Part shown: piece after piece, positions 25,415 to 47,801 of the stretch
How positions within the stretch are numbered: the first letter of the stretch is position 1
Layout: every line of letters starts with the position of its first letter
DNA from: Bryopsis sp. KO-2023
Lineage: Eukaryota; Chlorophyta; Ulvophyceae; Bryopsidales; Bryopsidaceae
Assembly: GCA_030272585.1 (NCBI GenBank)
Contig: BSYQ01000003.1
Location: 4,960,001 to 5,024,000, forward strand
Direction of reading: 5' to 3'
Length of the DNA stretch: 64,000 nucleotides
Translations under genes and position numbers: made by a program
Notes under the pieces: generated by a model
The model's input: only the letters and a program-made list of their open reading frames with translations
Told to the model about the DNA's origin: nothing
Databases searched by the model: none

Positions 25415-25939
25415 TGTAAAGACTGCGCTGTAGACTGCGACTCTGAAGCAGTCTGCCAGCCTGAAACAACAGCCTAGAAGGCTGCAACAAGTTCCGACAC
25501 GAGAGAGCGGGAGAGAGAGAGTGTTCAACCCCAAAATCGAGTTACAAGAATACCCTGAGGTGCTGCCCAAATACCCTAGGCTGCACCTCTGATCCAAACT
25601 GATCGTTCAAGGTCCTATCCATCAACATGACCTGACAGTCTGCCTCAGTGTCAGGTCCCCTGTCTGAAACCTTCTGAGCTGCCAGCCCTGCAGAAAAGCG
25701 TCTGCTGAGCTGTCAGCCCTGCAGAAAAGCGTCTGCTGAGCTGTCAGCCCTGCAGAAAAGCGTCTGCTGAGCTGTCAGCCCCCATTCACAGATCTAAGGG
25801 TTCCGCCCTGCTGCAGCAAACCGGCTGCAGCATTGCTGGTTCCCTAGAACTGCAGGCCTGTCAGTTCCCCTGAACTGCAGGTCTGCCAGTTCCCTGAACT
25901 GAGGATCTGACAGTTCCCCTGAACTGTAGAATCCTTACA
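25415..25939 (-). repeat. 3' LTR of element C (525 bp)
   Basis: Matches 33914-34376 but is 62 bp longer because an internal 31-bp unit (with GCAGAAAAGCGTCTGCTGAG) is present three times instead of once. Confidence 0.93.
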
Positions 25940-26912
25940 TTCCTCCCCATCTAGTTGGCAGTAGTCCCTTACTGCCCCAAAAGATTATAATAACAACCTT
26001 TGCCCCTTTTTGGATGTCAACTTTTTTTTTTTTTAACTTCTCTGCCACAGAAACTGGGTTTCGAAAGGGGTTATGTTATATAAGGAAGTCAAAGCAGTTC
26101 TGCAAAAACACTGTATTCAGGAAATTGTCCTAATGCAACAGAAACCCAAAATACCCTGAAAAATCAATTGGTAACACCCTTGCTGGAAAATTACAACCTG
26201 AAGTGTTTGTTTCTGCCACCATCTTGCACTACCCAGGAAATCCAGAAAAACTACCTTATAAAAAGTTCAAAGCAACAAGGAAATCATAGTCAGTTTAATT
26301 CTGCCTTCCCTAGAAGATTTTCCTACAGCCCACAAGGTCAGCTGAGACACCAAAACTTCTTGGCAAACAAAAACCCCCTTTTCCTGCAGAATACCTGAGT
26401 CACCTGATTACCCAATCCATTGCAACTCTGTATAATAAAAACCCATTTGACTGGACTTCCCTCAAAGGTCACCATGCAATTCTTTACTCTCCCTTTGGCT
26501 AATTCAGTAACTCTTATTTCAGATTGCAAATATGGAATTCTCTAGCAATAACATCTTACCCCTGCTGGACTTGCAATGTATCAACAGGTGAACCATTTTC
26601 ATAACCAAAACAGGTTGCAAACTTCAGAGTTTTCATCTCAACCTGATCAGAAACTGCAAAAAGATCCTTGTCCACCTCCAACACACTGATCACCAGAAAC
26701 TGGACAGCCCTAAGGGTTTAACCCTGCCTGAAAAATTCCACTTCCAACACACTGATCACCAGAAACTGGACAGCCCTTGAAAAATTCCACTTCCAACACA
26801 CTGATCACCAGAAACTGGACAGCCCCAAATCACCAACTCTTTCACTGCACCCCCTGGGCAAACCACATTCAATCATCCACTCCCATGGTCACACCTCCTG
26901 TCGATTCCTGCC
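25940..26912. other. Element C 3' untranslated region
   Basis: Between ORF3 and the 3' LTR of C. No coding potential was recognised. It contains a short tandem array at 26677-26826 and the polypurine tract next to the LTR. Confidence 0.6.
26677..26826. repeat. Three-copy tandem repeat in element C 3' UTR
   Basis: The unit CCAACACACTGATCACCAG followed by AAACTGGACAGCCC occurs three times, separated by shorter related spacers (TGAAAAATTCCACTT). Confidence 0.85.
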
Positions 26913-27779
26913 TCAGGTCGCCGGACGTTTCAAGCCCCTCTTTGGCGCAAGCGCGGGCACACTCCAGCGGATCTCTCGAAGTGGCACGCAGTCACGATTG
27001 GTTCGTCCCGGGGAGGCTGGCTGCGTTGGCAGGGGTGGACTGATGACCGCAATCCGCAAGGACGTCAGCACCCTCGGCGCCATGACCGTGTGCTCCCGCA
27101 GCTGGCACAGCCCGCACTCTTTCGTCGCATCCACCGAGACCCCCTTTCGCGTTTCGCTGAGTCGTCCAACCACCTCCAAGCTCCCGTCTGGGTTCGTTCT
27201 CTCCACCGTTACGTCTGGCGCGTACCAGAGTCTCTGGACACAGAGGTCCCTGCAGCATACCCGGTGCTTCCCACATGGAAGCTCCCGAACTGGTGCCCCA
27301 AGAGACCTCGCCGTCTTGAAGCAAAGCGAACAGCCACGTCCCGTTTCTTTCAGCGCCGTCTCCATCTCACTCTTTTGGTCTGCTGCAGGTTTTTCTGGTT
27401 CAGGGAGCCCTGTGTCCAGGAAGCCGAAGGACAACTCCTCTTCGGAATCCAACCGCGTTACCGGCATTTTCTTCGCCCACTCTCGCCACGCTCTCAGCTC
27501 ACTCTCGGCAGCACTCAGAGACCCTTGCAGCTTCCACTTTTCCTGCTCCACCTTTTGACACTTGCTCCTCAGCCTTTCCAACTCCGCGACGTCGACTGCC
27601 CTCTTCCGCAGGACCTGCACCGCCTCCTCAAACGCCACAACCTCATCTGCCCCCTTGATCACGTCGGCTTTCTCCACCGCTGCCGCAGGGATAACCACAG
27701 GGGCAGCCTCTGCTGGCTCACTGCTGCTGGCGGGGGTTGAGACGATAAGGGCGGCCTGGTTTGCTGGTTGCTGATCCAT
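26913..27779 (-). CDS. ORF3 of element C: coiled-coil, RING-like Cys/His protein (288 aa)
   Basis: A complete ORF downstream of pol and inside the LTRs. An Ala/Pro-rich N-terminus is followed by a heptad-like helix at about residues 45-110 (AELERLRSKCQKVEQEKWKL), an acidic stretch (DSEEELSF), then a Cys/His cluster. The cluster reads C-x2-C-x15-C-x2-H-x2-C (CSLC ... CGKHRVCCRDLC) with a distal C-x2-C (CGLC). This spacing resembles RING-type zinc fingers and is matched by ORF3 of element D. There is no signal peptide or membrane segment, so it is not env-like. A ubiquitin-ligase or zinc-scaffold role is inference only. Confidence 0.85.
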   Translation of the reverse strand: MDQQPANQAALIVSTPASSSEPAEAAPVVIPAAAVEKADVIKGADEVVAFEEAVQVLRKRAVDVAELERLRSKCQKVEQEKWKLQGSLSAAESELRAWREWAKKMPVTRLDSEEELSFGFLDTGLPEPEKPAADQKSEMETALKETGRGCSLCFKTARSLGAPVRELPCGKHRVCCRDLCVQRLWYAPDVTVERTNPDGSLEVVGRLSETRKGVSVDATKECGLCQLREHTVMAPRVLTSLRIAVISPPLPTQPASPGRTNRDCVPLREIRWSVPALAPKRGLKRPAT

Positions 27780-27964
27780 GTTGATTCCTTTTTTCTTTTC
27801 CCTTTCCGAACGATAGGCTCCTCTTTCTCTCTTCTTGCTCTGCGCACGTAACTTGCTAGACAGTTTCCGACTCCAGTATACTGCACACCTATTTCTGTTT
27901 CTGTCAGAGGTTGCTTCAGTCTGTCAGGGACATCAACCTGTCACCTCTGCTTGATCTAGTCCTT

Positions 27965-30900
27965 TCAGCTTCTTATCTCAAACTCACGTAACTTGTCCGG
28001 TGCGTTTCGCAAGTTTCTGGCAGGTTCCCAGGTGTCCTCCGATTGATCATAACCCTGCCACCTGACAAGGTACTGCTTCTTGCCCCTGACAGTCCTATCT
28101 GCCAGAATCCTGTCAACCAGATACTCCTCTTGGCCTGCCACCATTTCAGGCTCAGGTTGCCACCTGGGTGCCTCCCTGTCAGGAAAGCTGCCCTCCTGAT
28201 CTTCGAAAGCAGGTTTCAGCTTGGACACATGGAAGGTGTTATGAATTTTCCAATGACCTGGCAGCCTCAGCCTGACTGCAACTTCAGATAACCTCTTCAG
28301 AACTACAAAAGGTCCACAGTATTTTGCAGTCAATTTCCTGCTCAACACCTGTGGTAGGGGTAAGTCCTTTGTGGCGAGAAAAACTTTGTCGCCCGGCTGA
28401 AAGCCCCCTCCCCTTCTGTTTTCGTCCGCCCCCTGGCGTTGACGTGCCTGAGCAGAAGCAATGTTCCTTCTGCAGGTTTGCAATGCAGTCTGCCAAGTAG
28501 ACCACCAATCATCCACTGCAGGGCAAGCTGTAGCAGCTACAGCACTTGCAGGAGTCCTGGGTTGCTGTCCATTCATCAAATAGAAGGGAGAAAACCCAGT
28601 TGTAGCATTTATGCTGGAATTGTATGCAAATTCTGCAGCATCCAAATGCATATCCCAGTCTGTGCCTGCAGGTTCCACATAACTGCGCAGAATTTCCTGC
28701 ACTGTTCTGTTAGCTCGCTCAGTCTGACCATCTGTCTCAGGATGATAACTGCTAGACATTGCTAACCGAATGCCTGCCTTCTTCCAAAGAGCCCTCCAAA
28801 AATTGCTAGTGAAACGACTATCCCGATCAGAAACAATTTCTTGAGGCAATCCAAAGAAACGAACCACATGTTGGAAAAACAAATCTGCTACCCCTGCAGC
28901 AGTAACTGTCTGCTTTGTTGGAATGAGTCTGATCATTTTTGTGAACCGATCCACAACCACCAGCAAATAATCTGACCCTTTCTGAGTCCTTGGCAAAGGT
29001 CCAACAAAGTCCAATGAAACACTAGTCCACCTGCCATCTGGAATTGGCAAGGGCTGCAGCTTACCCAAAGGCTTCTGAGTAGAGGCCTTGTTTCGTTGGC
29101 AGGGAATGCAATTCCTTACATACTTCTGCACAGATCCTGAAATAAGGGGCCAGAAGTAATACTGCTGAACCCTGTGCAGGGTCTTCCTCCTGCCCAGATG
29201 TCCTGCCAATGCAGACTCATGGCAAGCATGCAGTATCTTTTCCCTGAGCCCATCTGCTTCAGGTATCCACCATTTCCAGGAATGACCAACATGTCTCCAA
29301 AGTTTCAGACCATCCCATTTCACATGTGGAGGTCTGGAAGGTGCTCCAATCAGCTGCCAACATAATGGATCCTTCTTGTAAGCTGCCAGCACTGCCTGCT
29401 GAAATTCCCGATCTGCTGTCAACCTTATCCTTGCATTCAGCTGAGGACCATGTTCCTCTGCCTGATGTGTGGCCCTGCTCAACGCATCTGCCACCACATT
29501 GTCTCTGCCTGGCCGGTACTTGATCTCGAACTTGAAGGATTGCAGAGTCTCCATCCATCGTGCCTGCCTCTGTGACAGGTGAGGCTGGGTGTGCAAAAAT
29601 TTTAGAGGTGCGTGATCGGTGTGCACGGTGAACTCTTGAGCATCCAAGTAGTGCCTCCACACTTTCAGAGCATGCACCACAGCCAACAGCTCCTTTTCAT
29701 GAGTCGCATAGTTGAGCTCTGCCGGTTGCAGTTTCCTGCTTTCATATGCCACTGGTTGCTGACCCTGCCCCTGGTCCTGTGTTAGGACTGCTCCAATAGC
29801 ATAGTCTGAGGCATCTGTGATCACCTCGAATCTCAGACTTGGGTCAGGCACCAAAAGCACTGGTGCAGACATTAACGCCTCCTTGACATCCTGCATTGCT
29901 GCAGCTTCTGCCTCAGTCCATTTCCACACTGCCTCCTTTTTCAATAGAGCAGTGAGTGGTTTGGCTCTTGCAGAAAAATCCTTGATGAATCTTCTGTAAT
30001 AGTTTGCCAATCCCAGAAATGACCTGAGATCCTTCACTGAAGTCAAAGGTGGCCAGTCCCTGATGACCTGCACCTTACTCTGCAACACCTGTACTCCTGC
30101 AGCACTCAACTCATGCCCCAGAAACTCAACTTGCTCCTTGCAGATTTCACATTTGGAAGCTGAAGCATATAATTTCTGCTCCCTCAACCTCTGCATCACC
30201 TTTTTCAAGTGAACCTTGTGTTCTGCCCAGCTCTTGCTAAAAATCAAGATGTCATCTAAGTAAACGATGCAGAAGGTATCCAGAAAATCATGTAACACAT
30301 GATTCATTGTGTTCATGAAGGTGGCAGGAGCATTTGTCAGCCCAAAAGGAAGAACAATGTACTCGTAGAGGCCATACCTGGTGCGGAAGGCCGTTTTCTC
30401 ACAGTCTGCAGGGTCCAACCGCACCTGATGGTAGCCTGCGCAGAGATCAATTTTGCTGAAGCAGCGAGCTCCCTGAATCTGATCCAGCAATTCCTCTATC
30501 CTTGGGATAGGGTACCTGTTCTTCACCGTTAGTTTGTTAAGTGCCCGAAAGTCTACGCACATCCTAAGCTTTCCGTTCTTCTTAGGAACAAACAAAATTG
30601 GTGAACCCCAGGGTGACTTGCTAGGTCTGATAAAACCCTGCTTCAGTAACTCTGCCAACTGCTTCTTCAATTCTTCTCTTTCTGCAAAACTGGCTCTATA
30701 AAGCCCCTTTTTCACTGGTTCTGCCCCTTCTACCAATTCAATCTTGTGGTTCACACCCCTGTCAGGAGGCAATTCCTGCGGCAGTTCCTCTTTAAACAAA
30801 TCCTGAAACTCCTTTCTGATCTGTTTTTCTAGCTCGACTGCCTCTTTCTGTTCCTCTGACAAGGTTTCTGGTTCACTGCCTCTCACTGCATCAGTACTTT

Positions 30901-32128
30901 CCAAACCATTTATTGAACATTCATTATTTACTTCCCGTAAATTCAATAGGTACATCGGCAGGCCCTTGCGAGCTGCCTGAGCTACCTCATGTGCAGACAT
31001 GAGGTCCAAATCTGCTGTACTGCAATCTTCCAATCTGCCTGTTTGCATTCTAAGTTTAACGACTCTACCCTGAGGCCCCTGCAAAGCCACTATCTTTTCC
31101 TGCCAATCTATGGTGGGGTTATGTTTGATCAACCAAGACATACCCAGCACCAGGTCATATCTGCCCAGTGTTACTGCATACATCTTTTCTTCAGACACAA
31201 ACCTCCCCATCTTGACACTGGCCTGCAGTTCTTTTTCTACCTTTTCCGAAGTCCTGCCATCTGCCAACTGAACTTCAGAAACTGCCTCAGAGTGTTGTGT
31301 CTGTATGCTGTTTTCCTGCAACCAATCTTTCGAAACAAAATTGTCGGTTGCACCACTATCTATCAAAATTCTAGCAAAACAATCTGCCACAAACCCTGTG
31401 GTCTTCAACATTCCCTGAGTCCCCCCATGGACTCCTCTCAACTTCAAAAGTGGGGGTTCATCCAAGCTATATCCTTTAAAGCAAACTTCATTAGGTCTGC
31501 CCAGCCCAGATTCCTCTCTCACTGAAAACAGGTCTGCGGTGTCTGCCCTCAGATCACCAGCAGCACCAACATGCACTGAAAAATCATGCAGGTCAGGTGT
31601 GGCCCCGCCTGGCCCTGCACCTACTGCCTCTGAGAATTGAGTAGTTGTGGCTACCGTAGGCACATCAACCCCCTCAATCTCACTCCATGACCCTGCAGGT
31701 GTCAGTGCCTCCTGCACTACACCTTCAGAATCCTTCTCTGAAACATCTGCAGATGCTGCGACTCCGCGCCCAGCATCTACCATTGCACTCTTCAAACAAA
31801 CTGCAAGCCTCCCCAACTTCGGCAGACCACTTGCAGTACTGCTCACCTTCTCCCTAAGGCCTCCAGAATTCCCTGCACCGGTGTCCCTGCCTGGATCACC
31901 ACCTGCAGAAATTCCATCCATGAATCTTACACACTTCTCCTCGGTTACGGCTACACACGGCTCATCAACCTTAGAATGGACTCCACGCCCATAGGCTACC
32001 CTCCCCTGAGGTAACACCTTGTGTGGGTGGCTACGCCGACCTTCCCACACTCCACTTCTGTCCTCCTGCTTCTCTTCTCCACGGCTGGCAGTCTCTCCAG
32101 ACTCCAGCCTGCTCAGTTTTCCTGACAA
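27965..32128 (-). CDS. Pol polyprotein of chromovirus C (~1387 aa)
   Basis: Domains in order: retropepsin (ILIDSGATDNFVS), reverse transcriptase (KIDLCAGYHQVR; catalytic YLDD in FCIVYLDDILIF), RNase H (ITDASDYAIGAVL), integrase HHCC zinc finger (H..H...CIPCQRNK) and DDE core (VSLDFVGPLP, IVSDRDSRFTS, ETDGQTERANRT), and a C-terminal chromodomain (YLVDRILADR..., YLVRWQGYDQSEDTWEP). The frame is -1 to gag. It has no ATG at its beginning, and an in-frame stop lies immediately upstream, leaving only about 16 nt of overlap with gag, so expression probably depends on frameshifting in CAGGAAAACTGA. The chromodomain suggests targeting to modified chromatin. No internal stops. Confidence 0.96.
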   Translation of the reverse strand: MSGKLSRLESGETASRGEEKQEDRSGVWEGRRSHPHKVLPQGRVAYGRGVHSKVDEPCVAVTEEKCVRFMDGISAGGDPGRDTGAGNSGGLREKVSSTASGLPKLGRLAVCLKSAMVDAGRGVAASADVSEKDSEGVVQEALTPAGSWSEIEGVDVPTVATTTQFSEAVGAGPGGATPDLHDFSVHVGAAGDLRADTADLFSVREESGLGRPNEVCFKGYSLDEPPLLKLRGVHGGTQGMLKTTGFVADCFARILIDSGATDNFVSKDWLQENSIQTQHSEAVSEVQLADGRTSEKVEKELQASVKMGRFVSEEKMYAVTLGRYDLVLGMSWLIKHNPTIDWQEKIVALQGPQGRVVKLRMQTGRLEDCSTADLDLMSAHEVAQAARKGLPMYLLNLREVNNECSINGLESTDAVRGSEPETLSEEQKEAVELEKQIRKEFQDLFKEELPQELPPDRGVNHKIELVEGAEPVKKGLYRASFAEREELKKQLAELLKQGFIRPSKSPWGSPILFVPKKNGKLRMCVDFRALNKLTVKNRYPIPRIEELLDQIQGARCFSKIDLCAGYHQVRLDPADCEKTAFRTRYGLYEYIVLPFGLTNAPATFMNTMNHVLHDFLDTFCIVYLDDILIFSKSWAEHKVHLKKVMQRLREQKLYASASKCEICKEQVEFLGHELSAAGVQVLQSKVQVIRDWPPLTSVKDLRSFLGLANYYRRFIKDFSARAKPLTALLKKEAVWKWTEAEAAAMQDVKEALMSAPVLLVPDPSLRFEVITDASDYAIGAVLTQDQGQGQQPVAYESRKLQPAELNYATHEKELLAVVHALKVWRHYLDAQEFTVHTDHAPLKFLHTQPHLSQRQARWMETLQSFKFEIKYRPGRDNVVADALSRATHQAEEHGPQLNARIRLTADREFQQAVLAAYKKDPLCWQLIGAPSRPPHVKWDGLKLWRHVGHSWKWWIPEADGLREKILHACHESALAGHLGRRKTLHRVQQYYFWPLISGSVQKYVRNCIPCQRNKASTQKPLGKLQPLPIPDGRWTSVSLDFVGPLPRTQKGSDYLLVVVDRFTKMIRLIPTKQTVTAAGVADLFFQHVVRFFGLPQEIVSDRDSRFTSNFWRALWKKAGIRLAMSSSYHPETDGQTERANRTVQEILRSYVEPAGTDWDMHLDAAEFAYNSSINATTGFSPFYLMNGQQPRTPASAVAATACPAVDDWWSTWQTALQTCRRNIASAQARQRQGADENRRGGGFQPGDKVFLATKDLPLPQVLSRKLTAKYCGPFVVLKRLSEVAVRLRLPGHWKIHNTFHVSKLKPAFEDQEGSFPDREAPRWQPEPEMVAGQEEYLVDRILADRTVRGKKQYLVRWQGYDQSEDTWEPARNLRNAPDKLREFEIRS

Positions 32129-33282
32129 TCAACAGCAAAATGGCCCAACTTGTCGCAGTTGTAGCACCGCACATTTGCTGCAGCGCGACCTGCGTCCATT
32201 CTGCTTCTGCCTGCTGACGAACTTTCTCCAGACTTTCGCCTCTGTCTGCGAGGACTGCCACTGCGTCCCCTGCTCTTGCTGCGACTTGCGTCACGGCGTT
32301 TGCCGTCGTCAAAACCCACACGGTTTCGCTGGAGGCCATCAACCTCCATGCGGTCACCTGATTGGGGAATATAACGCGGTGTCTGCCGATCGTCAAATCT
32401 GCCACGGTTGAAACTCTGAGACCTGCCTCTGCTCTGCGAGCGTCCTCTGCTCTGTGAGCGTCCTCTGCTCTGGGATCGTCCCCTGCTTTGGGACCTGTCC
32501 CTGCGTGAACTTTCACGCCTGCCTCTGGGACTGCGGCCTCTGCGTCCTTCTCTGCGGTATATCTCTAGAGGTCCTTCCCATGTAGCGGCAAGTGCTATTG
32601 CTCGCTCCAAATCTGCAGGATCTTCCATTTCAACCTTAGTGCGCAAACGATCATTCAGACCTTCTATGAAACGAAACAGCTGCTCCCCAGCATTGCTGTC
32701 GTTGATCTGCAACATGAGCCTGCGAAAATCGTGCACATATTCTGCGACAGACATTCGACCCTGCTTCAGGCGTGACCATTCACGTCTGAAGTCCTTGTTC
32801 TCGTTGGTCTTGCCGAACTGCCGTCTGAGATCTGCGACTAGTGCGGTCAGATCTGTAGGCAAAGCCCTCTGGCCTGCCATTGCCTCTTCGTAACGACTTC
32901 TCCACCATGTTCCTGCAGCACCTCTTAAACAGCCTGCAGCCACCAAAACCTGCTGTTCCCTGTCTCTGGTTGCAGTCAGATCATAATATGTCTGCAACTG
33001 AACCTGCCACTCGTTCAGAGGAACATCCTGTGGATCACCATACCAGGAGTCAGGGCCTTTTGCCCTTGCTTTACCCAGAGCTGCCGGCGGATGCTGCTCG
33101 GCCAACCTAGTCCGTACTGCGTGCCGGACTGCATCGTCCATCTGCGCGTTGACATTAGCGGCGACCTGCCTCAGGTGCAGGATCTCTTCCTGCATCTCTG
33201 CCATGCCCCGCCTCAGACCCTGAAGATCGAACGGATCTGGGGCTGGCGTTCCCATCTGCGGGTGCTCGTCTGTGCCTGACAT
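32113..33282 (-). CDS. Gag of chromovirus C
   Basis: Start chosen at the ATG of MSGTDEHPQMG, since the longer frame lacks an ATG. A short coiled coil is followed by the retrotransposon gag core (WYGDPQDVPLNEW ... FRREWSRLKQGRMSVAEY). Next comes an Arg/Ser repeat region with tandem RGRSQS units, then one CCHC knuckle (CYNCDKLGHFAVDC) near the end. The capsid-like core and knuckle package the RNA. The gene overlaps ORF0 at its 5' end in another frame and pol at its 3' end by about 16 nt. Confidence 0.93.
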   Translation of the reverse strand: MSGTDEHPQMGTPAPDPFDLQGLRRGMAEMQEEILHLRQVAANVNAQMDDAVRHAVRTRLAEQHPPAALGKARAKGPDSWYGDPQDVPLNEWQVQLQTYYDLTATRDREQQVLVAAGCLRGAAGTWWRSRYEEAMAGQRALPTDLTALVADLRRQFGKTNENKDFRREWSRLKQGRMSVAEYVHDFRRLMLQINDSNAGEQLFRFIEGLNDRLRTKVEMEDPADLERAIALAATWEGPLEIYRREGRRGRSPRGRRESSRRDRSQSRGRSQSRGRSQSRGRSQSRGRSQSFNRGRFDDRQTPRYIPQSGDRMEVDGLQRNRVGFDDGKRRDASRSKSRGRSGSPRRQRRKSGESSSAGRSRMDAGRAAANVRCYNCDKLGHFAVDCQEN

Positions 33283-33628: not shown

Positions 33629-33900
33629 GCAGCACACTTCTGCAGAAAGCCACTACAACACCGGCTAATTCCGACTAACCAAGAAGCCTTGCGCAAAACC
33701 TGCGTCTTCTAGATCTGCGCCGCCGCGCCAAACCTTTCTGGGATCTCTCTGAAAGCTGCGCCTATCTGCGCTGAACCTTTCTGCGACCTCTCCTTTGAAA
33801 GCTGCGCCTGCCTGCGCTACCTTTCACCAGAACTTCGTTCTCCTCTTTTGCTTCCTCCTGAAGCCTTTCAGGAACGCTGCGATCTTGTCGCCAGCCCTGA

Positions 33901-33912
33901 GCTCCGAAACCA
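33901..33912 (-). promoter_or_regulatory. Primer-binding site of element C
   Basis: On the minus strand TGGTTTCGGAGC, one base after the end of the 5' LTR. Confidence 0.85.
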
Positions 33913-33913
33913 A

Positions 33914-38702: not shown

Positions 38703-38704
38703 AC

Positions 38705-39236: not shown

Positions 39237-41431
39237 GCGCAGGGGACAGCATGAGCCTGGGGACCGAAGAAGACCCCCCTCCGGTGCAAGGCGTGTTTGT
39301 GCAAAACAATATCCAGCACAACGTCCAGAACGTGCACCATGTGGAGGTGAACCAAGACGAGACCTCTATCACCGTAGCCCAGCTGGCGGCCAACACCGAA
39401 GAATGGGCGGGACGTACTCAGGCCGAACTGTACCAAGCACTCAACGAAGTGCGAGGAGAACTCCACCACACCCGCGAGGAAGCCGAAGCTCGACAATGGC
39501 AAGTAGCCAACGAGCAAGCCGAAGCCATGAACACGGCCCTCGAGAACCAGAGAGCCGAACTGGAGGACCATCACTGGGAGGACCGCGTTCGGCTGGAAGA
39601 GGAGTTCATCCGACGGCTCGAGCACCTCAAAGCCGAGAATGGGCACCTCGTGGCCGAAATGGAAGAACGTATGCACCTGGCCCAAGAACGGGCGGCCGCC
39701 AAGGCAGCTCAAGATTTCCAAGACCTTGGAGCCCGGACCGAAAGGCTCACGTTGCAAGTGGCAGACCAGCGGGCCGCTGTCGAGACGCTCGGGGTCGAAA
39801 CAAAGTGTCTACGGGAAGACTACCCATCCGTGGACGAGCTCGTGAAGTTATGGTCCAAGCAAGTTCCAGCGCAGCCCCAAGTCATTCCTGTGTACATGGC
39901 CGGAGCCGGAACCCAAACTGTGACCCAAACTACACAAGCGCCACCCGGACCACCCCCGTCTTCCAGTTTTCAAGACGTGCCCCTTGTTTCTCCTATCGTC
40001 AGCAACGCACCCGCGGTACCGATTCTCGTGCCACCCAGTGGAGTACCCAGCCAACGGCGAGCCGGACCACCACCAGGACCTGTCATTCGAGAGCCCGGTT
40101 CTGCACCAACGGGCGGGCCGAGGCCGAGCCGAAGAGACCCAGCGGCCGCCGCAAGGCCACCCAGCGGCCAGAACCAAGCCACCAATCCTACACCGCCATC
40201 CGGCCAAGGACCTCCCATAGCACCACGTCAAGAACCACCCCCTGGACCCAGTCAGCCACAGGGAGTTGGAGCTGTCGGATTCAATTCGGGAACGGACCCG
40301 TTTGCGGGCCTGGGTTCCTATGCCTCAGTTGGACAGCAAGACCCCAACTCCGGATTCCGAGACGCTCCAAGAAGACGGCGGCCAGGAGGAGGAGGCGGGG
40401 ACGATGGTGATGGAGGTGGTGGGCCGAATGGACCAGGAGGATCTGGCGGGCCGAATGGACCTGGTGGGCCGAATGGACCGGGAGGAGGACCAAATGGACC
40501 TGGCGGCGGGCCGAACGGACCTGGAGGTCCCGGAGGACCTGGCGGACCGGGAGGACCATTTGGACCACAATTACCCGGAGGGCCACCAGCAGCCGGAGGC
40601 AATGGATTGAGACAAGTCAAGATACCAATGCCACGAGCTTTCAACGGCACCGCGAATGTCACGGACTGGCTGATGCGCATGGGCCGATGGTTTCGTGCCC
40701 AGGCCATTCCAGAGGAGCTATGGCTTCAGGTCATCTGTGCCAACACGGAGGGCCCTGCAGCCGAATGGATGAATTTGACCGAGCTCAAAGTAATGGAGGG
40801 CCGAAGACAGCCATTTGCCGACTGGCGCTCGTGGGCCGAGGAGGCTCGAAAACTGTTCCAACCGACGACAACCTCTGAACACGCCCGAGTCGAGTTACGA
40901 ACCCTGAGGCAGACGACCTCAGTGAAGGACTACATCAAGCGCTATAACAGCGTTTGCTTCAGGATCCCGGATATGAGTGAAGCGGAGGTATATAGCGCAT
41001 TCACCGCAGGTTTGCGTGAACCGATCCGAAGTCAAGTTGTTGGCTTCATTCGTGACGACGTGCAAGCCGCTATCGAAATGGCCGAACGGCTCGATGGTAT
41101 CCGTGGACTTCATAACTCGAGTGGAGGCCGGGGTGGAGGAGGTCATCAGCGTTGGAATCGAAGATCGAGAGTTAACAGTATTGGCGACAAAGCCGGAGAT
41201 GATCGTCTCAACTACATTGGTGGAAACCGCGGCCGGGGAGGTTCAAGCCGAGGCCGAGGCCGAGGCCGTGGCCGCAGTGGGGGAAGATTTGGAGGACGAG
41301 GAGGTGGAGGCCGATCTACCACACCAAGTGGAAGAGGAGGCCGGGGTGGTATATCATGCTACTTGTGCGGAGGAGATCATGGGATCAGGAATTGTCCCAA
41401 GCTCTCGGCCGCAAAGCGTTCGATAAACTGA
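39164..41431 (+). CDS. Gag of chromovirus D (755 aa)
   Basis: A long coiled coil at about residues 80-230 (Glu/Ala/Arg-rich) is followed by a Pro-rich segment and a Gly/Pro/Asn repeat (GPNGPGG units, about 40420-40570). The gag core follows (MPRAFNGTANVTDWLMRMG ... VKDYIKRYNSVCFRIPDMSE), then an RG/GR-rich stretch and one CCHC knuckle (CYLCGGDHGIRNC). It is unusually long for a chromovirus Gag because of the coiled-coil and Gly-rich parts. It overlaps pol by 76 nt, with pol in the -1 frame. Confidence 0.92.
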   Translation: MDLVPYYAEPEAEAIAYPDGVEEMSAGDSMSLGTEEDPPPVQGVFVQNNIQHNVQNVHHVEVNQDETSITVAQLAANTEEWAGRTQAELYQALNEVRGELHHTREEAEARQWQVANEQAEAMNTALENQRAELEDHHWEDRVRLEEEFIRRLEHLKAENGHLVAEMEERMHLAQERAAAKAAQDFQDLGARTERLTLQVADQRAAVETLGVETKCLREDYPSVDELVKLWSKQVPAQPQVIPVYMAGAGTQTVTQTTQAPPGPPPSSSFQDVPLVSPIVSNAPAVPILVPPSGVPSQRRAGPPPGPVIREPGSAPTGGPRPSRRDPAAAARPPSGQNQATNPTPPSGQGPPIAPRQEPPPGPSQPQGVGAVGFNSGTDPFAGLGSYASVGQQDPNSGFRDAPRRRRPGGGGGDDGDGGGGPNGPGGSGGPNGPGGPNGPGGGPNGPGGGPNGPGGPGGPGGPGGPFGPQLPGGPPAAGGNGLRQVKIPMPRAFNGTANVTDWLMRMGRWFRAQAIPEELWLQVICANTEGPAAEWMNLTELKVMEGRRQPFADWRSWAEEARKLFQPTTTSEHARVELRTLRQTTSVKDYIKRYNSVCFRIPDMSEAEVYSAFTAGLREPIRSQVVGFIRDDVQAAIEMAERLDGIRGLHNSSGGRGGGGHQRWNRRSRVNSIGDKAGDDRLNYIGGNRGRGGSSRGRGRGRGRSGGRFGGRGGGGRSTTPSGRGGRGGISCYLCGGDHGIRNCPKLSAAKRSIN

Positions 41432-44400
41432 AGGTCCGGGGCGCGAGGCCACCTACCCTGGACACAAATGCGGGTGGTATCAGGGCCGAGGTTCCGGAAG
41501 ATTTTGGGGAGGAGCAAGCAGAAGGAATAGATGATAGAAAAATGACCAAGAGAGTTACTTGGCCGGACAAGGCGGAAGAGCATGAAAAACGGATAGACAC
41601 TAGCTCCAGCTCGCATAGTTCCAATACTGCAGCGCGAGCCGAGTCCCATGGAACAGGACTCAGTGAAGGAGCGGATGATACTGGCCACGCACGGCCTGGG
41701 GTATCATCAGGGGAACCACCATCCACTGTACAGCTCGGCCCGCAAGGCAACCGAGGGATGGATGGTTCAAATTTTTCTCAAGTGCCGGGGGCACTCAGTC
41801 GCGCCGACTCTGCAGTGGCCGACAATTTTTCTTACATCGCCAGAACGGGAAACACCTGTTCCAAAGGGCGGTTTACTGGCTTCGAGATAGCCATTCAAGT
41901 TGGAGACCGACCGGTGAAGGCGTATGTGGATAGCGGAAGTTGGGAAAACTACATCTCAACGGCAACTCAAGCACGACTGGAATTGGAGGCAACCGGAGAG
42001 CACCGCACCCTGGTCATGGCGGATGGTTCCAAGGGCTCAACCCGGGGCCGAGCCGAACATGTTCGATTTCGATCGGGCCGAGCCACTTTTGTCGCGGATT
42101 TCCACATCTTTCCCGACATGGCATACGAGATGATTTTGGGCATCCCGTGGCTTGTAGCCGAAAACCCCGATCTCTGCTTTCGGACACGGACAATCTCGGT
42201 TCAGCGGGGGAAGACAAGGATTTCTCTTCCTCTAGCTATCTCGGGCAAGCCTCGACCCACCGAGACTATGAGCGTGGGCGACATGGAACAGACATCCGCG
42301 GCCAAGCTTTTAAAGGATGCGCGTGCTGGACAAGGAGACGTTGTGATGGTAGTGGTTACCGAAGCCGAGGCCGAACAAAACGATGAACATACCAAAGATG
42401 ATATCAGCAAGTTGGTTCGGCCCGAGCTCTCAAAAGCGATCACCCAGCTCTTAACGGACTACAAGCGAGTATTCGCATCTGACCTTCCTAAAGGACCACC
42501 ACCGGTCAGGAACGGTCATGAATTCGAGATCGAGCTGGAGGAAGGAACGAAGCCGATTTTTCGGCCTATGTACAAGCTCTCTCCAGCCGAACTCGCGGAG
42601 GTCCGGAAGCAGCTCGACTACATGTTGGACCGGGAGCTGATTCGGCCCTCAAAGAGCCCGTGGGGCGCCCCCATTCTTTTCGCCAACAAAAAGGATGGAG
42701 GGCTTCGCTTTTGCATTGACTACCGGTGGATCAACCAGCGGACGGTCAAGAACCGCTACCCACTCCCTCTCCCTGAGGAATTATTGGACCGCCTCCAGGG
42801 AGCCAAAATCTTCACTCGGCTGGACTTGCGCTCGGGGTATTGGCAGATGCCCATCCGGGCCGAAGATCAGGAGAAGACCGCTTTTCGGACCCGTTATGGG
42901 CACTACGAATACAAAGTAGTGCCCTTCGGCCTAACGAACGCACCCCCGCAGTTCATGGCGATGGTGAACGACCTCTTCCGGGATTTCCACGATAAGTTTC
43001 TTGTGGTCTTCCTGGACGACATCATCGTCTACAGTAAAACGGAGGAGGAACACGCGGAGCACCTTCGGCTCGTGCTGGACAAGCTGGCCGAGCATCAGCT
43101 CTACGCGAAGGCGTCAAAGTGTTCCATCGCCGTCAAAGAACTGGATTTCGTGGGGCATTGGATTTCGGCCGACGGCATCTCCCCTCATCGCAGCAAGACC
43201 CAAGCCATTCAAGATTGGAAGCCCCTACAGTCTGTGCCGGAAGTGCGGAGTTTTCTGGGCATGGTGTCCTACTACCGACGCTTCATCAGGGAGTTTTCAA
43301 GGATTGCTGCTCCCATACAGAAGCTCGTCAAGAAGGACCAAGCCTGGGAATGGGGTCCGGCCCAGACAGCAGCGTTTCAAGAGCTCAAGGACCGACTCAC
43401 TTCGGCCCCAGTACTCTTGATCCCGGACCCGGCCAAGCCGTACGTTGTTGCCACGGATGCATCGGACTTCGCATTAGGAGCTACCTTAATGCAGGGCAGC
43501 AAGGAGGAAGGTTATCAGCCCATTGCATTTTTGAGCCGTTCCCTGAACTCAGCCGAGCAGAAGTATTCGGCCTACGAAAGGGAACTATTGGGCATCTCCT
43601 ATGCTCTCGCCCAATGGCGTCACTACCTGGAAGGAGCTCCTGGTGGGACTACGGTGTATACGGATCACCTCCCAGCTACCCATTTTCTACAGCAACGCGT
43701 CCTTTCACGGACTCAAACGCGTTGGTTGAAGTCTGGATCGTTCCAGTCTATCAAGCCGAAGATTTTATATCTTCCGGGCCGAGCCAATTTTGTGGCCGAT
43801 GCGCTTTCTCGCAAGCCACAACTCCGGCTCAATGCGATTTTGGGGGCCAAAATCTCGCCCGGGGAGGCACAAGACTGGCAAGCCGCCATAAAGGAGGACC
43901 CTATTCTTCGACCAATCGTGACCCAACTTGAAGAGGGACGAGCAGTGCAGGGGTACACCCTGACCCCAGATGGACTGCTCATGTATCAAGCCAAGGACGT
44001 TGGAGCCGAGCCGAAACTCGTTGTGCCGGTTTCTAAACGCCAGGTGGTATTGCACGACCACCACGATGTGCCGATGGCGGGACATCCAGGGAAAGCTCGG
44101 ACAGCCGAGCTTGTGAGCCGAAGACATTGGTGGAGAGGCTGGCGCCGAGCCGTGAACCACTATGTCGAATCGTGCCCCACTTGCCAAATGATGAAGACCG
44201 AGAATTCTAAGCAGAAAGGGTTGCTACACCCTCTGCCAGTTCCGGCCTACAAGTGGGAGCAGCTGACGACCGACCTCGTTACTGACTTACCGAAGTCTAA
44301 CGGGTACACGGCCGTGGCTGTCTTTGTGGATCGGCTCACGAAGATGTGCAAGTTCGTCCCGTGCACCAAGGAGGTTTCGGCGAAAGGATATGCCGAGCTC

Positions 44401-45321
44401 TTTCTCTCCAAAGTATTCCCCACCTCAGGGATACCGGAAGTTATCGTGTCTGACCGAGACCCAAGATTTACGAGCCAGTTCTACAAGGAGTTGTTTCGGC
44501 TCGTGGGCACCGATCTAAGGATGTCGACCGCTCACCATCCGCAATCTGATGGACAGAGCGAAGTAACAATCCGAACACTGGAGAACTTCCTTCGGCCCTA
44601 CATTGAAGCGAGGCCGGAGACATGGAGCGAATACCTCAGCACGGCCGAATTTGCTGCAAACAATTCGGTCAACGCCAGCACCAAATACACCCCTTTCTAC
44701 CTGATGTATGGGCAACACCCAAGAGGCCTGGAGGCCGACCGGCCGAGTACTAACGTGGAGGCGGCCGAGGCCATGGTGAGCCGAATGAACCGAGACCTGG
44801 AGGAGGCCAAAGCAAACTACGCTTCGGCCCAGGAGACCATGTGTGTGAGCGCCAACAAAAAGAGGCGACATGTGGAATTCGCAGTGGGACAGGAGGTTTG
44901 CCTCCGAAGTACCCACCTCCCTCTGGCCGTAACCAAGCACATTCCGGCCAAGGTCAGGCGAAGGTTCATCGGGCCGTTCAAGGTTGAGGCCGTAATATCA
45001 CCAGTGGCCTATAGGCTCGACCTCCCACCAGGCTGGAGGCTTCACCCTACATTCCACGTCTCCAAGCTCAAGGAATACAAGCGGTCCGAGGAGTTCGTGC
45101 GGGATGCACCTCCCGGCCCGGCTCTTATCGATGAGCTGGATGGAGAAGAGGAATACGAAGTGGAGGCTATTGTCAGGGAGAAAGGAAAGGGAAGAGGAAA
45201 ACGTTATTTGGTTTGCTGGAAAGGATACCAACCCCATGAGGCAACATGGGAGCCGAAGGAGAGTCTGACACATTGTTCAGATCTGCTGGCCGAGTTCGTT
45301 GCACGAACGGGCCGAGCATGA
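41356..45321 (+). CDS. Pol polyprotein of chromovirus D (~1321 aa)
   Basis: Retropepsin (AYVDSGSWENYIS), reverse transcriptase (TRLDLRSGYWQMPI; FLDD in LVVFLDDIIVYS), RNase H (VATDASDFALGATL), integrase zinc finger (H..H...SCPTCQMM), DDE core (LTTDLVTDLP, VIVSDRDPRFTS, SDGQSEVTIRT) and a C-terminal chromodomain (EVEAIVREKG..., YLVCWKGYQPHEATWEP). The frame is -1 to gag with a 76-nt overlap; an ATG exists in the overlap but frameshift expression is as likely. No stops or frameshifts. Nearly identical to the decayed pol of element G. Confidence 0.96.
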   Translation: MLLVRRRSWDQELSQALGRKAFDKLKVRGARPPTLDTNAGGIRAEVPEDFGEEQAEGIDDRKMTKRVTWPDKAEEHEKRIDTSSSSHSSNTAARAESHGTGLSEGADDTGHARPGVSSGEPPSTVQLGPQGNRGMDGSNFSQVPGALSRADSAVADNFSYIARTGNTCSKGRFTGFEIAIQVGDRPVKAYVDSGSWENYISTATQARLELEATGEHRTLVMADGSKGSTRGRAEHVRFRSGRATFVADFHIFPDMAYEMILGIPWLVAENPDLCFRTRTISVQRGKTRISLPLAISGKPRPTETMSVGDMEQTSAAKLLKDARAGQGDVVMVVVTEAEAEQNDEHTKDDISKLVRPELSKAITQLLTDYKRVFASDLPKGPPPVRNGHEFEIELEEGTKPIFRPMYKLSPAELAEVRKQLDYMLDRELIRPSKSPWGAPILFANKKDGGLRFCIDYRWINQRTVKNRYPLPLPEELLDRLQGAKIFTRLDLRSGYWQMPIRAEDQEKTAFRTRYGHYEYKVVPFGLTNAPPQFMAMVNDLFRDFHDKFLVVFLDDIIVYSKTEEEHAEHLRLVLDKLAEHQLYAKASKCSIAVKELDFVGHWISADGISPHRSKTQAIQDWKPLQSVPEVRSFLGMVSYYRRFIREFSRIAAPIQKLVKKDQAWEWGPAQTAAFQELKDRLTSAPVLLIPDPAKPYVVATDASDFALGATLMQGSKEEGYQPIAFLSRSLNSAEQKYSAYERELLGISYALAQWRHYLEGAPGGTTVYTDHLPATHFLQQRVLSRTQTRWLKSGSFQSIKPKILYLPGRANFVADALSRKPQLRLNAILGAKISPGEAQDWQAAIKEDPILRPIVTQLEEGRAVQGYTLTPDGLLMYQAKDVGAEPKLVVPVSKRQVVLHDHHDVPMAGHPGKARTAELVSRRHWWRGWRRAVNHYVESCPTCQMMKTENSKQKGLLHPLPVPAYKWEQLTTDLVTDLPKSNGYTAVAVFVDRLTKMCKFVPCTKEVSAKGYAELFLSKVFPTSGIPEVIVSDRDPRFTSQFYKELFRLVGTDLRMSTAHHPQSDGQSEVTIRTLENFLRPYIEARPETWSEYLSTAEFAANNSVNASTKYTPFYLMYGQHPRGLEADRPSTNVEAAEAMVSRMNRDLEEAKANYASAQETMCVSANKKRRHVEFAVGQEVCLRSTHLPLAVTKHIPAKVRRRFIGPFKVEAVISPVAYRLDLPPGWRLHPTFHVSKLKEYKRSEEFVRDAPPGPALIDELDGEEEYEVEAIVREKGKGRGKRYLVCWKGYQPHEATWEPKESLTHCSDLLAEFVARTGRA

Positions 45322-45644
45322 CTGAAGGAAGCTTCTGATGCAACTGACGAGGGTGATGGGGGAGTTGGAAGTCATGATGACGAACTGATGAGGTCAACCT
45401 CGGCCGGAATGGGACGGTACCTCAAACGAGGCGGTACCTCGGAAGTTCGGAGGGAATTCCCATCCCTCGTCACATCAGAGTGTACCTTTCAGTTGCGCAC
45501 TGTGTCTGACCGGTACCTCATCGGCGAATTTAAGGAGAAGTAACGAAGGCGCTACAGAAAGCCTTTGTTTGATTGAGTCAGAGAAAAAAAAAAAGGAGAG
45601 AGAGCCCACACGGCCGAACACAGAAAAGAAAGGAAAGAGGAGCC

Positions 45645-46868
45645 ATGGATCTGACAGCGGCCAACTTGGAGCGATTTCTGCAGGACGCGCGACAGTCCAC
45701 TGAGCAGAAGAACAAGCTCGAGGCCGAACTTGCCGAATGGCAAAATAGGGCCAACGAGGCGGAGAAGCGGGCAAAAGCCGCTGAGGAGAAAGTGGCTCAG
45801 TTGGAGGAACAGCTGAAAACGCAGCGCTTGGATGCGTTTCGGCAAGCAGCAGTGTGGGGGCAGGAAAGGGAAAGGCTGGCGAAAACAGCCATGGCCGAAG
45901 CTATCGACACTCTCAATCGTGGACTGCAGCGTATGGAAATGGACCAACCTCTGGCCGGGGAAAAAGAAAAAGAAAAAGAGCACGTGGAAACCGAAACAGT
46001 GGAGGACTCGGTACAAGAAGAAGTCGCTGCGGAGAGGCTACCAGAGGGACCATCGTCAACCCCACTGAAGGTGGTGGTCCCGCGACGAAAGAGGTCGAGG
46101 AAGCTCAAAGGCCGAGGGGTGGGGAGGTTCATCCTGGATGAGGCCATGGAAGTGGACCAGGCTGAGGCCGAGGGGGAAGATGAGCAGCAGCTCTGGGATT
46201 ACACGGAAGATCCCTACGCTGACTTGGAGGACGCTCTTCCCCCGAGGCCGAAGCCTGGTCCCGTGCTGCTATCCGGGAGTGAGGATGACCTCATTTCGGA
46301 GGAGCCTCCGAAAACGTCGTCCCTACCTCCACCACCACCTCCAGCACCTGCTCCGTCCACGTTCGCCTGCGCTGCTTGCGCATATCCGCGGGAAGCTCCC
46401 CGCCCTGGTTTGGATCGGGTGCTCTGCAACAAAGGGCATCTTTTGTGCAAAAAACACAATGTGGGGTTGAGGATCGCGGCACGAGCAGGAGCTCTCATCT
46501 CGGCCGACGAGTCGGGAGGACCTTACCTCCCCCGCATACAGGATCTCATCGGTGAGGGAGACCAAGGCGTCAGGCCGATCCTCCCATTCGACGCCCCACT
46601 CCCGGATTGTCCAAGCTGTACCAAGGAGTCGTTAAAAGGTCGCTGGCCGGGCAAGCTCAAAGAGCAGATCGGCACCTGGAATACTCAGTATTTCCAGGCT
46701 CTCGGCTTGGAACTCCCAGGAGCAGCCAGATCGCACCGCCAGCCGAGCCACCCACCACCATCACCAGACCAACCATCAGCACCTTCCTCGGCGACTCGCC
46801 TTCCGCTCCCTCCACGTAGCCCAGCAACGTCCAAGAGGCATGGGCCGAGAACCAGGTCGCAGAAATAG
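45645..46868 (+). CDS. ORF3 of chromovirus D: coiled-coil, acidic, RING-like protein (407 aa)
   Basis: Starts at ATG 45645 (MDLTAANLERFLQ), about 320 bp after pol. A strong coiled coil at about residues 15-95 is followed by an acidic region, a basic patch (PRRKRSRKLKGRG) that may be a nuclear signal, a second acidic block (DYTEDPYADLED) and a proline run. Then comes a Cys/His cluster C-x2-C-x15-C-x3-H-x2-C-x2-H with a distal C-x2-C (CPSC). The tail is Pro/Ser/Arg-rich. The first spacing is the same as in ORF3 of element C. There is no membrane segment, so it is not an envelope. A partial second copy in G differs by scattered substitutions and a 6-nt in-frame deletion. Confidence 0.9.
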   Translation: MDLTAANLERFLQDARQSTEQKNKLEAELAEWQNRANEAEKRAKAAEEKVAQLEEQLKTQRLDAFRQAAVWGQERERLAKTAMAEAIDTLNRGLQRMEMDQPLAGEKEKEKEHVETETVEDSVQEEVAAERLPEGPSSTPLKVVVPRRKRSRKLKGRGVGRFILDEAMEVDQAEAEGEDEQQLWDYTEDPYADLEDALPPRPKPGPVLLSGSEDDLISEEPPKTSSLPPPPPPAPAPSTFACAACAYPREAPRPGLDRVLCNKGHLLCKKHNVGLRIAARAGALISADESGGPYLPRIQDLIGEGDQGVRPILPFDAPLPDCPSCTKESLKGRWPGKLKEQIGTWNTQYFQALGLELPGAARSHRQPSHPPPSPDQPSAPSSATRLPLPPRSPATSKRHGPRTRSQK

Positions 46869-47412
46869 GCGAACTGGGGTCGGGAACGAAAGAGAGAAGG
46901 GCAAGGGATGTTTGGGTGTTTTACAGTGTGATGGCCTGGGATTGGGCTGAGTTTCTGTTGATTTTACTTTTCTGGATAAGGGACATTCAGGCCCAGAACT
47001 GGGTTATTTTGTTTTGAGTTCTGACCCAATGGTTTTTTTTATACAATGGTTTTTATACAGTGGGTTGGCCAGGCTGGGTCAATCACCTGCTTTCTGGATA
47101 CTTATAAGGGAATCTGAATTTGGACCTTATGGGTTGTTTTGTGCAAACAGTTAGCTGGTTTACAGTACATGATTCGGCCTGCAGGTGGCAGCCTTATCAT
47201 TTGGTTGATTTTTGTTGATAATTCGCTTAGAGTTTTTGAACACTCTTTTAATTTCAGCGAAGGTTAAACATTATTTGACTCCCTTAAAAGCTAAAGGCTT
47301 GTTGGATGCCTTGAAAGCGTTTTGTGTGTGTCTATGCGTATGTGTGAGTGTAACCCCCAAATTTCGGTTACTTGGGTACGCGAGGCGCGTACTTGCGTGG
47401 GGGGGGAGTGGT
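46869..47412 (+). other. Element D 3' UTR and polypurine tract
   Basis: Non-coding and T/G-rich. It ends in a G-rich tract (about 47399-47411) directly before the 3' LTR, the expected plus-strand primer. Confidence 0.7.
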
Positions 47413-47801
47413 TGATACGAACGTCCGTCGTATGACACGCGGTTCGGCCCACTCACCCAACACGTGGTTCGGCCTGACAGTAGTCGGACCGAACCAGCTC
47501 ACCATCATCATAGCCACACATTAAGGGAGAGGGCCAGGCCGCCTCTGAGGTGGCAACCCTCAGTTCGGCCTGGAGCCTCACATTCAGCTTAGGGTCCATT
47601 AGGACACGGCCAAGGGGCCATTAGGACGCTGAGTTGGATGAAAGGGTTGGACAGGCTGTCGGCCCGGCCGAATACTTATTCGGCCCGGACCACAGCCTTA
47701 TTGTAACTTGGACTATTGTAAAGATCCTTGTTTGAGAAAGTCTTTCCGTGCTCTAGACGTAAGTCCACTCGACTAGTCTATTTGTTCCAACGTTTGTATC
47801 A
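47413..47801 (+). repeat. 3' LTR of element D
   Basis: 389-bp copy of the 5' LTR, followed by the target duplicate CTTCG. Confidence 0.96.

What the first reader, a model, noticed from the sequence alone, without database searches (positions are those of the whole stretch)
25415..47801. Chromoviruses with a conserved extra ORF3 carrying a RING-like Cys/His cluster
Two chromoviruses with unrelated LTRs and clearly different gag and pol (C at 25415-34376, D at 38314-47801) each encode a third protein between pol and the 3' LTR: C at 26913-27779, D at 45645-46868. Both have the same order: coiled coil, acidic stretch, then a cluster C-x2-C-x15-C-x(2-3)-H-x2-C with a distal C-x2-C. The x15 spacing is identical although the residues between differ. 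No membrane segment is present, so these are not envelope genes. Extra ORFs are known in some LTR retrotransposons, but I know of no described chromovirus lineage with a RING-like ORF3. A role in ubiquitylation, silencing escape or chromatin targeting is inference.
Basis: partly seen in the sequence, partly recalled or inferred. Interest (0 to 1): 0.9.

Follow-up and report, generated by a model that had tools for sequence, protein, structure and literature searches.

The report
RING-like accessory gene in algal transposons
Jumping genes in a green seaweed carry an extra, strongly preserved gene for a RING-finger-like zinc protein that is swapped between related elements and also turns up in an unrelated kind of jumping gene, so it is probably a tool used against the host cell rather than a part of the copying machine.

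Summary
The window is Bryopsis sp. KO-2023, a green alga. Chromoviruses C and D both carry a sense ORF3 between pol and the 3' LTR. It is not chance: ORF3 follows 139 of 141 C-clade and 75 of 91 D-clade pol ends examined, and dN/dS against the window copy is 0.19-0.22 (3 C pairs) and 0.06-0.10 (7 D pairs). Across six C-type families the only invariant Cys/His are eight ligands in C3HC4 (RING) order; D-type is C3HCHC2. The "identical x15" is coincidence (12-20). RING ranks first of the zinc-finger classes compared but is unproven: no Pfam cut-off is reached, profile matches are weak, single-sequence AlphaFold failed. New here: ORF3 is exchanged as a cassette (pol 93% / ORF3 45% identical; pol 85% / ORF3 93%); D-clade elements share a conserved non-coding element before ORF3; a six-copy, KDZ-transposase-like element carries both ORF3 types. 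That sharing argues against a gag/RT role and for a host-directed accessory factor, plausibly a ubiquitin ligase. Function is inferred. My searches found no homologue outside Bryopsis sequence.

The parts
25415..34376 (-). chromovirus C (LTRs 25415-25939 and 33914-34376)
32113..33282 (-). C gag with zinc knuckle
27965..31921 (-). C pol: protease, RT, RNase H, integrase, chromodomain
26913..27779 (-). ORF3-C, 288 aa
   Evidence: open frame; 59 of 133 genome matches cover at least 284 of 288 residues without a stop (counted); dN/dS 0.19-0.22 in 3 pairs
27105..27332 (-). C3HC4 zinc cluster, ligands C150 C153 C169 H172 C175 C180 C222 C225
   Evidence: invariant columns of A4 and A6; positions checked
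27582..27665 (-). best heptad stretch of ORF3-C (residues 39-66), putative coiled coil
   Evidence: 12 of 500 shuffles reach it
38314..47801 (+). chromovirus D (LTRs 38314-38702 and 47413-47801; TSD CTTCG)
39164..41431 (+). D gag
41356..45321 (+). D pol: protease, RT, RNase H, integrase, chromodomain
45355..45369 (+). conserved intercistronic block e2 (GATGGGGGAGTTGGA), opens a short ORF
45402..45417 (+). conserved intercistronic block e1 (GGCYGGWATGGGACRG)
   Evidence: 112 genome matches, 0 for the reversed control
45645..46868 (+). ORF3-D, 407 aa
   Evidence: open frame; 27 of 98 genome matches cover 407 of 407 residues without a stop (counted); dN/dS 0.06-0.10 in 7 pairs
45735..45818 (+). 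best heptad stretch of ORF3-D (residues 31-58), putative coiled coil
   Evidence: 16 of 500 shuffles reach it
46368..46619 (+). C3HCHC2 zinc cluster, ligands C242 C245 C261 H265 C268 H271 C322 C325
   Evidence: positions checked; the protein has six Cys in all, each one a ligand

Best explanation
ORF3 is a conserved accessory gene of Bryopsis chromoviruses. It encodes a soluble protein with a coiled-coil-prone N-terminal part, an acidic middle, an eight-ligand zinc domain of RING order and a basic tail. Shown here: the gene, its ligands, its selection, its near-fixed presence in the ORF3-bearing clades, its exchange between elements as a cassette, and its presence in a DNA-transposon-like element. 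Inferred: the eight ligands bind two zincs in a RING-type cross-brace; the protein multimerises; it is made from its own initiation event downstream of pol (in the D clade helped by the conserved intercistronic element); and it acts in trans on a host pathway common to retrotransposons and DNA transposons, most likely as a RING-type ubiquitin ligase that removes or modifies a host silencing or restriction factor.
For: Gene is real: against the window copy dN/dS is 0.19-0.22 in 3 C pairs and 0.06-0.10 in 7 D pairs; dN is below dS in the N-terminal, zinc and C-terminal segments of all 8 pairs cut up. Presence: after 139 of 141 C-clade pol ends and 75 of 91 D-clade ends at 59% identity or more. 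Ligands: the only invariant Cys/His in six C-type families (22-41% identical to C) are the eight of C3HC4. Prediction met: four pol families in which sequence search had found no ORF3 of their own were read; 2 of 4 (L045, L048) held ORF3 with exactly the C-type and D-type pattern. RING sets rank first of the zinc-finger classes for both types (C-type 34.8% in register over C1-C5, PHD, FYVE, ZZ, LIM and MYND at most 1.4%). Cassette exchange: Dwin/L033 gag dS 0.30, pol dS 0.52, ORF3 45% identical with dS saturated; Cwin/L021 pol dS 1.25, ORF3 dS 0.17; similarity breaks off near the pol stop or before the ORF3 ATG. Sharing: a KDZ-like element carries a D-type ORF (38-39%, E about 1e-34 to chromovirus ORF3) and a C-type ORF (33% over 81 aa, E 2e-10 as a single comparison) in 6 of 6 copies. 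A cut-and-paste element should need no gag or RT, so the shared job should be host-directed (inference).
Against: No RING family reaches its Pfam cut-off (best RING_XB3-XBAT31, E 0.0026, 18.2 bits against 50), and non-RING families score in the same weak range (DUF2752 E 0.012, Zn_ribbon_8 0.097; Zn_Tnp_IS91 0.031). No relevant solved structure matches. Among the hhalign controls true RING sets reach 97%, while FYVE, a cross-brace domain that is not RING, reaches 24% against RING, about as much as ORF3 does; and the C-type scores only 1.0% against the IAP/MDM2 RING set, the D-type 8% against the general RING set. AlphaFold single-sequence models failed (mean pLDDT 38 and 36). Spacings depart from classical RING (C3-x2/3-H4; C5-x4-C6 or C5-x2-H6; 38-53 residues between C6 and C7). 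D-type lacks the hydrophobic residue and the Trp that contact E2 enzymes in many RINGs (recalled). Selection within lineages shows no sign of an arms race; in family Cb the ratio is less strict (0.31-0.33, pairs with L026). One copy (L022) has lost ligand C6. No expression or protein data.
Confidence: 0.42

Rival explanations
1. The zinc domain is a nucleic-acid- or chromatin-binding cross-brace or other treble-clef domain without ligase activity; ORF3 is a DNA-bound regulator or anti-silencing factor (VANC-like in role) or directs insertion.
For: Net basic tails in 20 of 22 and a basic patch ahead of an acidic stretch in several D-type proteins (sequences); chromodomain in pol and a sub-cut-off one in the KDZ-like transposase; D-type lacks usual E2-contact residues (recalled); FYVE scores against RING about as well as ORF3 does.
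Against: Ligand order and hydrophobic positions of C-type fit RING better than PHD, FYVE, ZZ, LIM or MYND; PHD order is C4HC3 (recalled).
Confidence: 0.33
2. ORF3 is an accessory structural or replication factor of the virus-like particle (gag/RT partner, RNA chaperone, nuclear import).
For: Lies within the genomic RNA; a coiled coil could bind gag; near-fixed in its clades.
Against: The same protein types sit in a DNA-transposon-like element in whose 10 kb no RT motif was seen; the representative of a related chromovirus clade does without it (L046) and another has only a coiled-coil ORF (L047); ORF3 is swapped independently of gag-pol.
Confidence: 0.15
3. Envelope-like protein.
For: Position between pol and 3' LTR.
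Against: No transmembrane stretch in 22 proteins.
Confidence: 0.01
4. Passenger or chance ORF.
For: Some copies are broken (L049 keeps only the N-terminal part, L050 runs out inside the cluster; L022 lost a ligand); some near-identical pairs show mostly non-synonymous changes (L034/L035: 0 synonymous, 4 non-synonymous; L024/L025: 2 and 5; L010-L013 each 1 and 1 against the window copy).
Against: dN/dS 0.06-0.22 in the 10 diverged pairs with the window copies and 0.31-0.33 in the Cb pairs with L026; invariant ligands; survey counts.
Confidence: 0.02

Closest known systems
ORF3s of bdelloid rotifer LTR retrotransposons (GDSL esterase, DEDDy exonuclease), PMC5408684 (abstract and passages seen)
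   Same: Third ORF, non-envelope types, shared between unrelated retroelement classes.
   Different: Different protein families; the words RING, ubiquitin, zinc and chromovirus were not found in its text; sharing there is with Penelope-like retroelements, here with a DNA-transposon-like element.
Extra sense ORFs of plant LTR retrotransposons (review PMC7264820; first of three parts read, plus a word search)
   Different: The sense cases described there are env-like; RING, zinc, ubiquitin, chromovirus, alga and coiled were not found in its text.
Tcn1-like chromoviruses with an additional ORF of unknown function (PMC2864245, passages seen)
   Same: Chromoviruses with an extra ORF.
   Different: Nature and place of that ORF were not in the passages; RING, zinc and ORF3 were not found in its text.
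VANC anti-silencing proteins of Arabidopsis VANDAL transposons (PMC5735166, PMC10398659; search listing only)
   Same: Accessory TE protein acting on host silencing (for ORF3 inferred).
   Different: DNA transposons; sequence-specific binding proteins; nothing RING-like in what I saw.
TET/JBP dioxygenases carried by heterogeneous fungal DNA transposons (PMC12730594; listing only)
   Same: One chromatin-directed accessory gene carried by different transposon lineages.
   Different: Other enzyme family; sharing with LTR elements not mentioned in what I saw.
RING finger (C3HC4; SIAH-type C-x3-H spacing; recalled)
   Same: Ligand order of C-type; GHLxC stretch of some D-type and CPxC of all D-type read.
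   Different: Spacings, long C6-C7 loop, profile scores below all cut-offs.

Membership tests
Chromovirus (Ty3/gypsy) | LTRs, gag, pol with RT-RNase H-integrase and C-terminal chromodomain | tested here: met
Chromovirus (Ty3/gypsy) | Target-site duplication | tested here: inconclusive
   D: CTTCG on both sides; C: GGAAG against GGTGT, no match
RING finger (C-type ORF3) | Eight ligands in C3HC4 or C3H2C3 order | tested here: met
   C3HC4, invariant in 6 of 6 families
RING finger (D-type ORF3) | Eight ligands in C3HC4 or C3H2C3 order | tested here: not met
   eight ligands, but C3HCHC2
RING finger | Classical spacing C3-x-H-x2-[CH]-x2-C (recalled) | tested here: not met
   C-type x2 and x4; D-type x2-3 and x2 to His
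RING finger | Profile match above curated cut-off | tested here: not met
   best E 0.0026 at 18.2 of 50 bits
RING finger | Profile-profile similarity | tested here: inconclusive
   34.8% (C-type), 20-24% (D-type against SIAH); true RING controls 97%, FYVE control 24%
RING finger | Cross-brace fold | tested here: inconclusive
   single-sequence models pLDDT 38 and 36
RING finger | E2 binding and ubiquitin transfer | not testable with these tools
   needs protein
Env-like ORF3 | Transmembrane segment | tested here: not met
   maximum 1.42 over 22 proteins
KDZ DNA transposon (L037) | KDZ transposase domain | tested here: inconclusive
   PF18758 E 3.5e-4, 20.8 bits against cut-off 26.6
KDZ DNA transposon (L037) | Terminal inverted repeats and target-site duplication | not tested
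   element ends not identified

The most novel reading that the evidence does not exclude
A transposon-encoded RING-type ubiquitin ligase family, born in or confined to Bryopsis and its kin, serves as an exchangeable anti-host module for two unrelated classes of transposon: chromodomain LTR retrotransposons swap variants of it like cassettes, and a chromodomain KDZ-like DNA transposon carries one of each type on opposite strands.
Probability: 0.3. Interest if true: 0.92.

Novelty: new variant of a known kind. Interest (0 to 1): 0.72.

Why it matters
Extra genes in LTR retrotransposons are often orphan ORFs of unknown role. Here one protein type recurs across many families with more than two hundred copies behind pol (139 and 75), is held by strong selection, moves between elements independently of gag-pol, and is shared by two transposon classes. 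That points to a common host pathway and makes it testable with a single purified domain. If it is a ubiquitin ligase, it would be a retrotransposon counterpart of viral RING effectors and give a handle on transposon silencing in a siphonous alga.

Tried and rejected
Identical x15 spacing as a signature: rejected. Envelope: rejected. Chance or decaying ORF: rejected. C-type and D-type as proven homologues: not supported. Homologues outside Bryopsis: single queries at E 0.001 gave one Bryopsis record for ORF3-C and, for ORF3-D, one record labelled Parasphingorhabdus that is 94% identical and probably algal DNA; a C-type profile at E 10 gave the Bryopsis record only; C-type gave none in viral contigs. 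No D-type profile search and no search of metagenome contigs was made. Structure from single sequences was uninformative, so no fold search was run. Topology test: pol rejects two of four trees and favours Cwin+L024 (AU 0.93; the other tree with L021+L023 0.068); ORF3 rejects the Cwin+L024 tree (AU 0.0205) but cannot separate the other three; this supports exchange only mildly, and the dS contrasts carry the argument. Papers: the rows listed by searches showed no RING-like ORF3 in a chromovirus or other LTR element; the library lacks most subscription papers.
Full report
Where it is. The window is G000:C3:4960001-5024000 of a 91-Mb genome in 28 contigs. ORF3-C's only database relative, P0001, belongs to Bryopsis sp. 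KO-2023 on a contig of 3,628,164 bases, which is the length of contig C12 here, so the host is that green alga.

Anatomy. C and D are chromovirus elements with the usual domains. ORF3 follows pol in the same sense after a gap of 185 nt in C and 323 nt in D, so it is neither fused to nor overlapping pol. ORF3 proteins are soluble by hydropathy, mostly acidic in the middle and basic at the end.

Survey. ORF3-C gives 133 genome matches, ORF3-D 98; 59 and 27 of them are full length without a stop (C counted at 284 or more of 288 residues). To count misses I started from pol. Of the 150 listed rows of the C-pol search (further matches were not listed) I dropped 9 partial ones. With pol identity of 53% or more, an ORF3 match lies within 3.2 kb downstream in 108 of 110; the two misses were not read. 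In the 47% family that test gave 1 of 31, and that one is a neighbouring D-type fragment. The representative L045 nevertheless holds an ORF3 with the full C-type pattern, and with it as query ORF3 lies 122-141 bases behind 31 of 31 pol ends. That makes 139 of 141. For D, of 150 rows I dropped 4 partial ones and left 55 rows of the 49-51% clade uncounted (its one representative read, L046, has no ORF3). Of the other 91, 69 have ORF3 and 6 of 6 in the 72-73% family with the L048 query, making 75 of 91. Of the 16 left, two were read and hold a broken ORF3 (L049, L050), five belong to the 59% family whose one representative read, L047, has a coiled-coil ORF without the zinc cluster, and nine were not read.

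Ligands. In C-type, A6 (six families, 22-41% identity to C) leaves C13 C16 P26 C32 H35 C38 C43 W48 C85 L87 C88 N124 invariant: exactly eight Cys/His, C3HC4 order. In D-type, eight ligands in order C3HCHC2 with CPxC-x-K recur in all nine families looked at. The general pattern fits 22 of 23 ORF3 proteins; the miss, L022, has Phe for C6. L045 and L048 were read after the motif was known from the other families, so they are tests rather than fits; L046 and L047 are the negative cases.

Selection. NG86 against the window copy gives 0.194, 0.191 and 0.221 for three C copies and 0.058-0.096 for seven D copies. L001-L008 differ by 14 synonymous changes and 1 non-synonymous in sum; L010-L013 each by one and one. 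In family Cb, L026 against L024 and L025 gives 0.31 and 0.33; the pairs L024/L025 (2 synonymous, 5 non-synonymous) and L034/L035 (0 and 4) are too close to use. All segments of ORF3 show dN below dS in 8 pairs. Recombination between copies makes the exact ratios rough.

Cassette exchange. ORF3 type follows the pol clade in the 14 elements compared: C-type with C-clade pol, D-type with D-clade pol. Within a clade the two genes part company. Dwin and L033: gag dS 0.30, pol dS 0.52, ORF3 45% identical. Cwin and L024: pol 83%, ORF3 31%. Cwin and L021: pol 85% with dS 1.25, ORF3 93% with dS 0.17. DNA similarity breaks off 6 bases after the pol stop (C/L024) and about 180-243 bases after it, before the ORF3 ATG (D/L033). 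Template switching between co-packaged RNAs would do this (inference).

Expression element. The D-clade gap holds e2 (GATGGGGGAGTTGGA) and e1 (GGCYGGWATGGGACRG). e1 is exact in the six D families read together with pol, present with two mismatches in L048, and absent from L046, L047, the C-type loci searched (L021, L024, L027, L028, L045) and from L037 and L040, whose D-type ORFs do not follow a pol in the DNA read. e2 is in five of the six (not in place in L039). e1 occurs 112 times in the genome, the reversed control 0 times. In Dwin/L033 the first 180 bases after pol are 166/180 identical although pol dS is 0.52. I read this as an ORF3 expression signal; which kind is open.

A DNA-transposon-like element carries both. 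No RT motif was seen among the ORFs of L037. Its transposase ORF matches KDZ (E 3.5e-4) and Chromo (E 5e-4), both under Pfam's cut-offs. On one strand lies a D-type ORF of 541 aa, on the other a C-type ORF of 354 aa (CIFC..CDAHIVC-x4-C-x4-W..CLLC). All six transposase copies have both (some are damaged: the C-type ORF is in two pieces on C9 and has a TAG on C4, and the transposase is in two pieces on C12). One further C-type copy on C8 has neither in those searches. The D-type ORF is 38-39% identical to chromovirus ORF3; the C-type matches the L045 chromovirus ORF3 at 33% over 81 residues (E 2e-10 as a single comparison; E 4e-5 in the genome search for the same family). So the gene has crossed between element classes.

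Is it RING? For: order of ligands; C-x-[ILVF]-C, H-x-[ILV]-C and a Trp after C6 in the C-type families read; GHLxC in some and CPxC in all D-type read (comparison with RING recalled). hhalign ranks RING sets first for both types. Against: spacing, low absolute scores with a FYVE control as high as ORF3, 1.0% for C-type against the IAP/MDM2 set, no cut-off reached, no usable model. I rate a RING-like two-zinc domain as likely (about 0.7) and ligase activity as open (about 0.4).

Function. A protein kept by LTR retrotransposons and by a cut-and-paste element is unlikely to serve capsid or reverse transcription. A shared host target (silencing, chromatin, repair, protein turnover) is the economical reading. 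Ubiquitin transfer is the mechanism I bet on; chromatin or nucleic-acid binding is the main rival.

What is known. Extra ORFs between pol and the 3' LTR are known in plants (PMC7264820, part read) and rotifers (PMC5408684, abstract and passages), the latter shared between retroelement classes; an orchid Gypsy family carries an m6A demethylase ORF (PMC9289625, passages); Tcn1-like chromoviruses have an additional ORF of unknown function (PMC2864245, passages); anti-silencing or chromatin-directed accessory genes are known in DNA transposons (PMC5735166, PMC10398659, PMC12730594, listings). The rows listed by searches showed no RING-like ORF3 in chromoviruses. Green-algal chromoviruses (Chlamyvir) are discussed in PMC3350952; the passages I saw mention an ORF3 with a chromodomain in a Selaginella element, nothing RING-like.

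Noticed in passing
window 45355-45417 and D-clade loci: Conserved non-coding blocks e1/e2 between pol and ORF3; e2 opens a short ORF (M[GE]ELD...) in five of six families aligned.
   Followed up: partly
L037:3010-9061: KDZ-like element with chromodomain transposase and two opposed zinc-cluster ORFs, one of each type, with 186-bp tandem repeats between them.
   Followed up: partly
G000 contig C2: Gave many of the short, stop-ridden ORF3 fragments in the ORF3 searches, beside a few intact copies; C2 may hold a large decayed region.
   Followed up: no
L022:7016-8118: An ORF3 (89% identical to C) with no matching gag-pol in the 10 kb read; similarity begins about 22 bases after the pol stop and ends shortly after ORF3; ligand C6 is Phe. 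A captured or retrocopied ORF3?
   Followed up: partly
G000 C3:5694684, C7:2589125 and others; C4:3216685, C7:451719 and others: Further ORF families matching C-type ORF3 (most open frames 447-499 aa; 454 and 449 aa) whose element class was not determined.
   Followed up: no
window 25415-25939 / 33914-34376: C's two LTRs are identical except for a 62-base length difference and the flanks show no target-site duplication, as after recombination between copies.
   Followed up: no
window 58668-61198 (-) and 55493-55786 (-): A broken D-type element with chromodomain pol end and stop-bearing ORF3 pieces.
   Followed up: no
window 12901-18723 and 49005-54133: Two other LTR elements with RT and integrase but no chromodomain match at E 0.001 in the ORFs scanned.
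   Followed up: no
P0002: A protein recorded as Parasphingorhabdus sp. (1,153-base contig) is 94% identical to ORF3-D; the bacterial record probably contains algal DNA.
   Followed up: no
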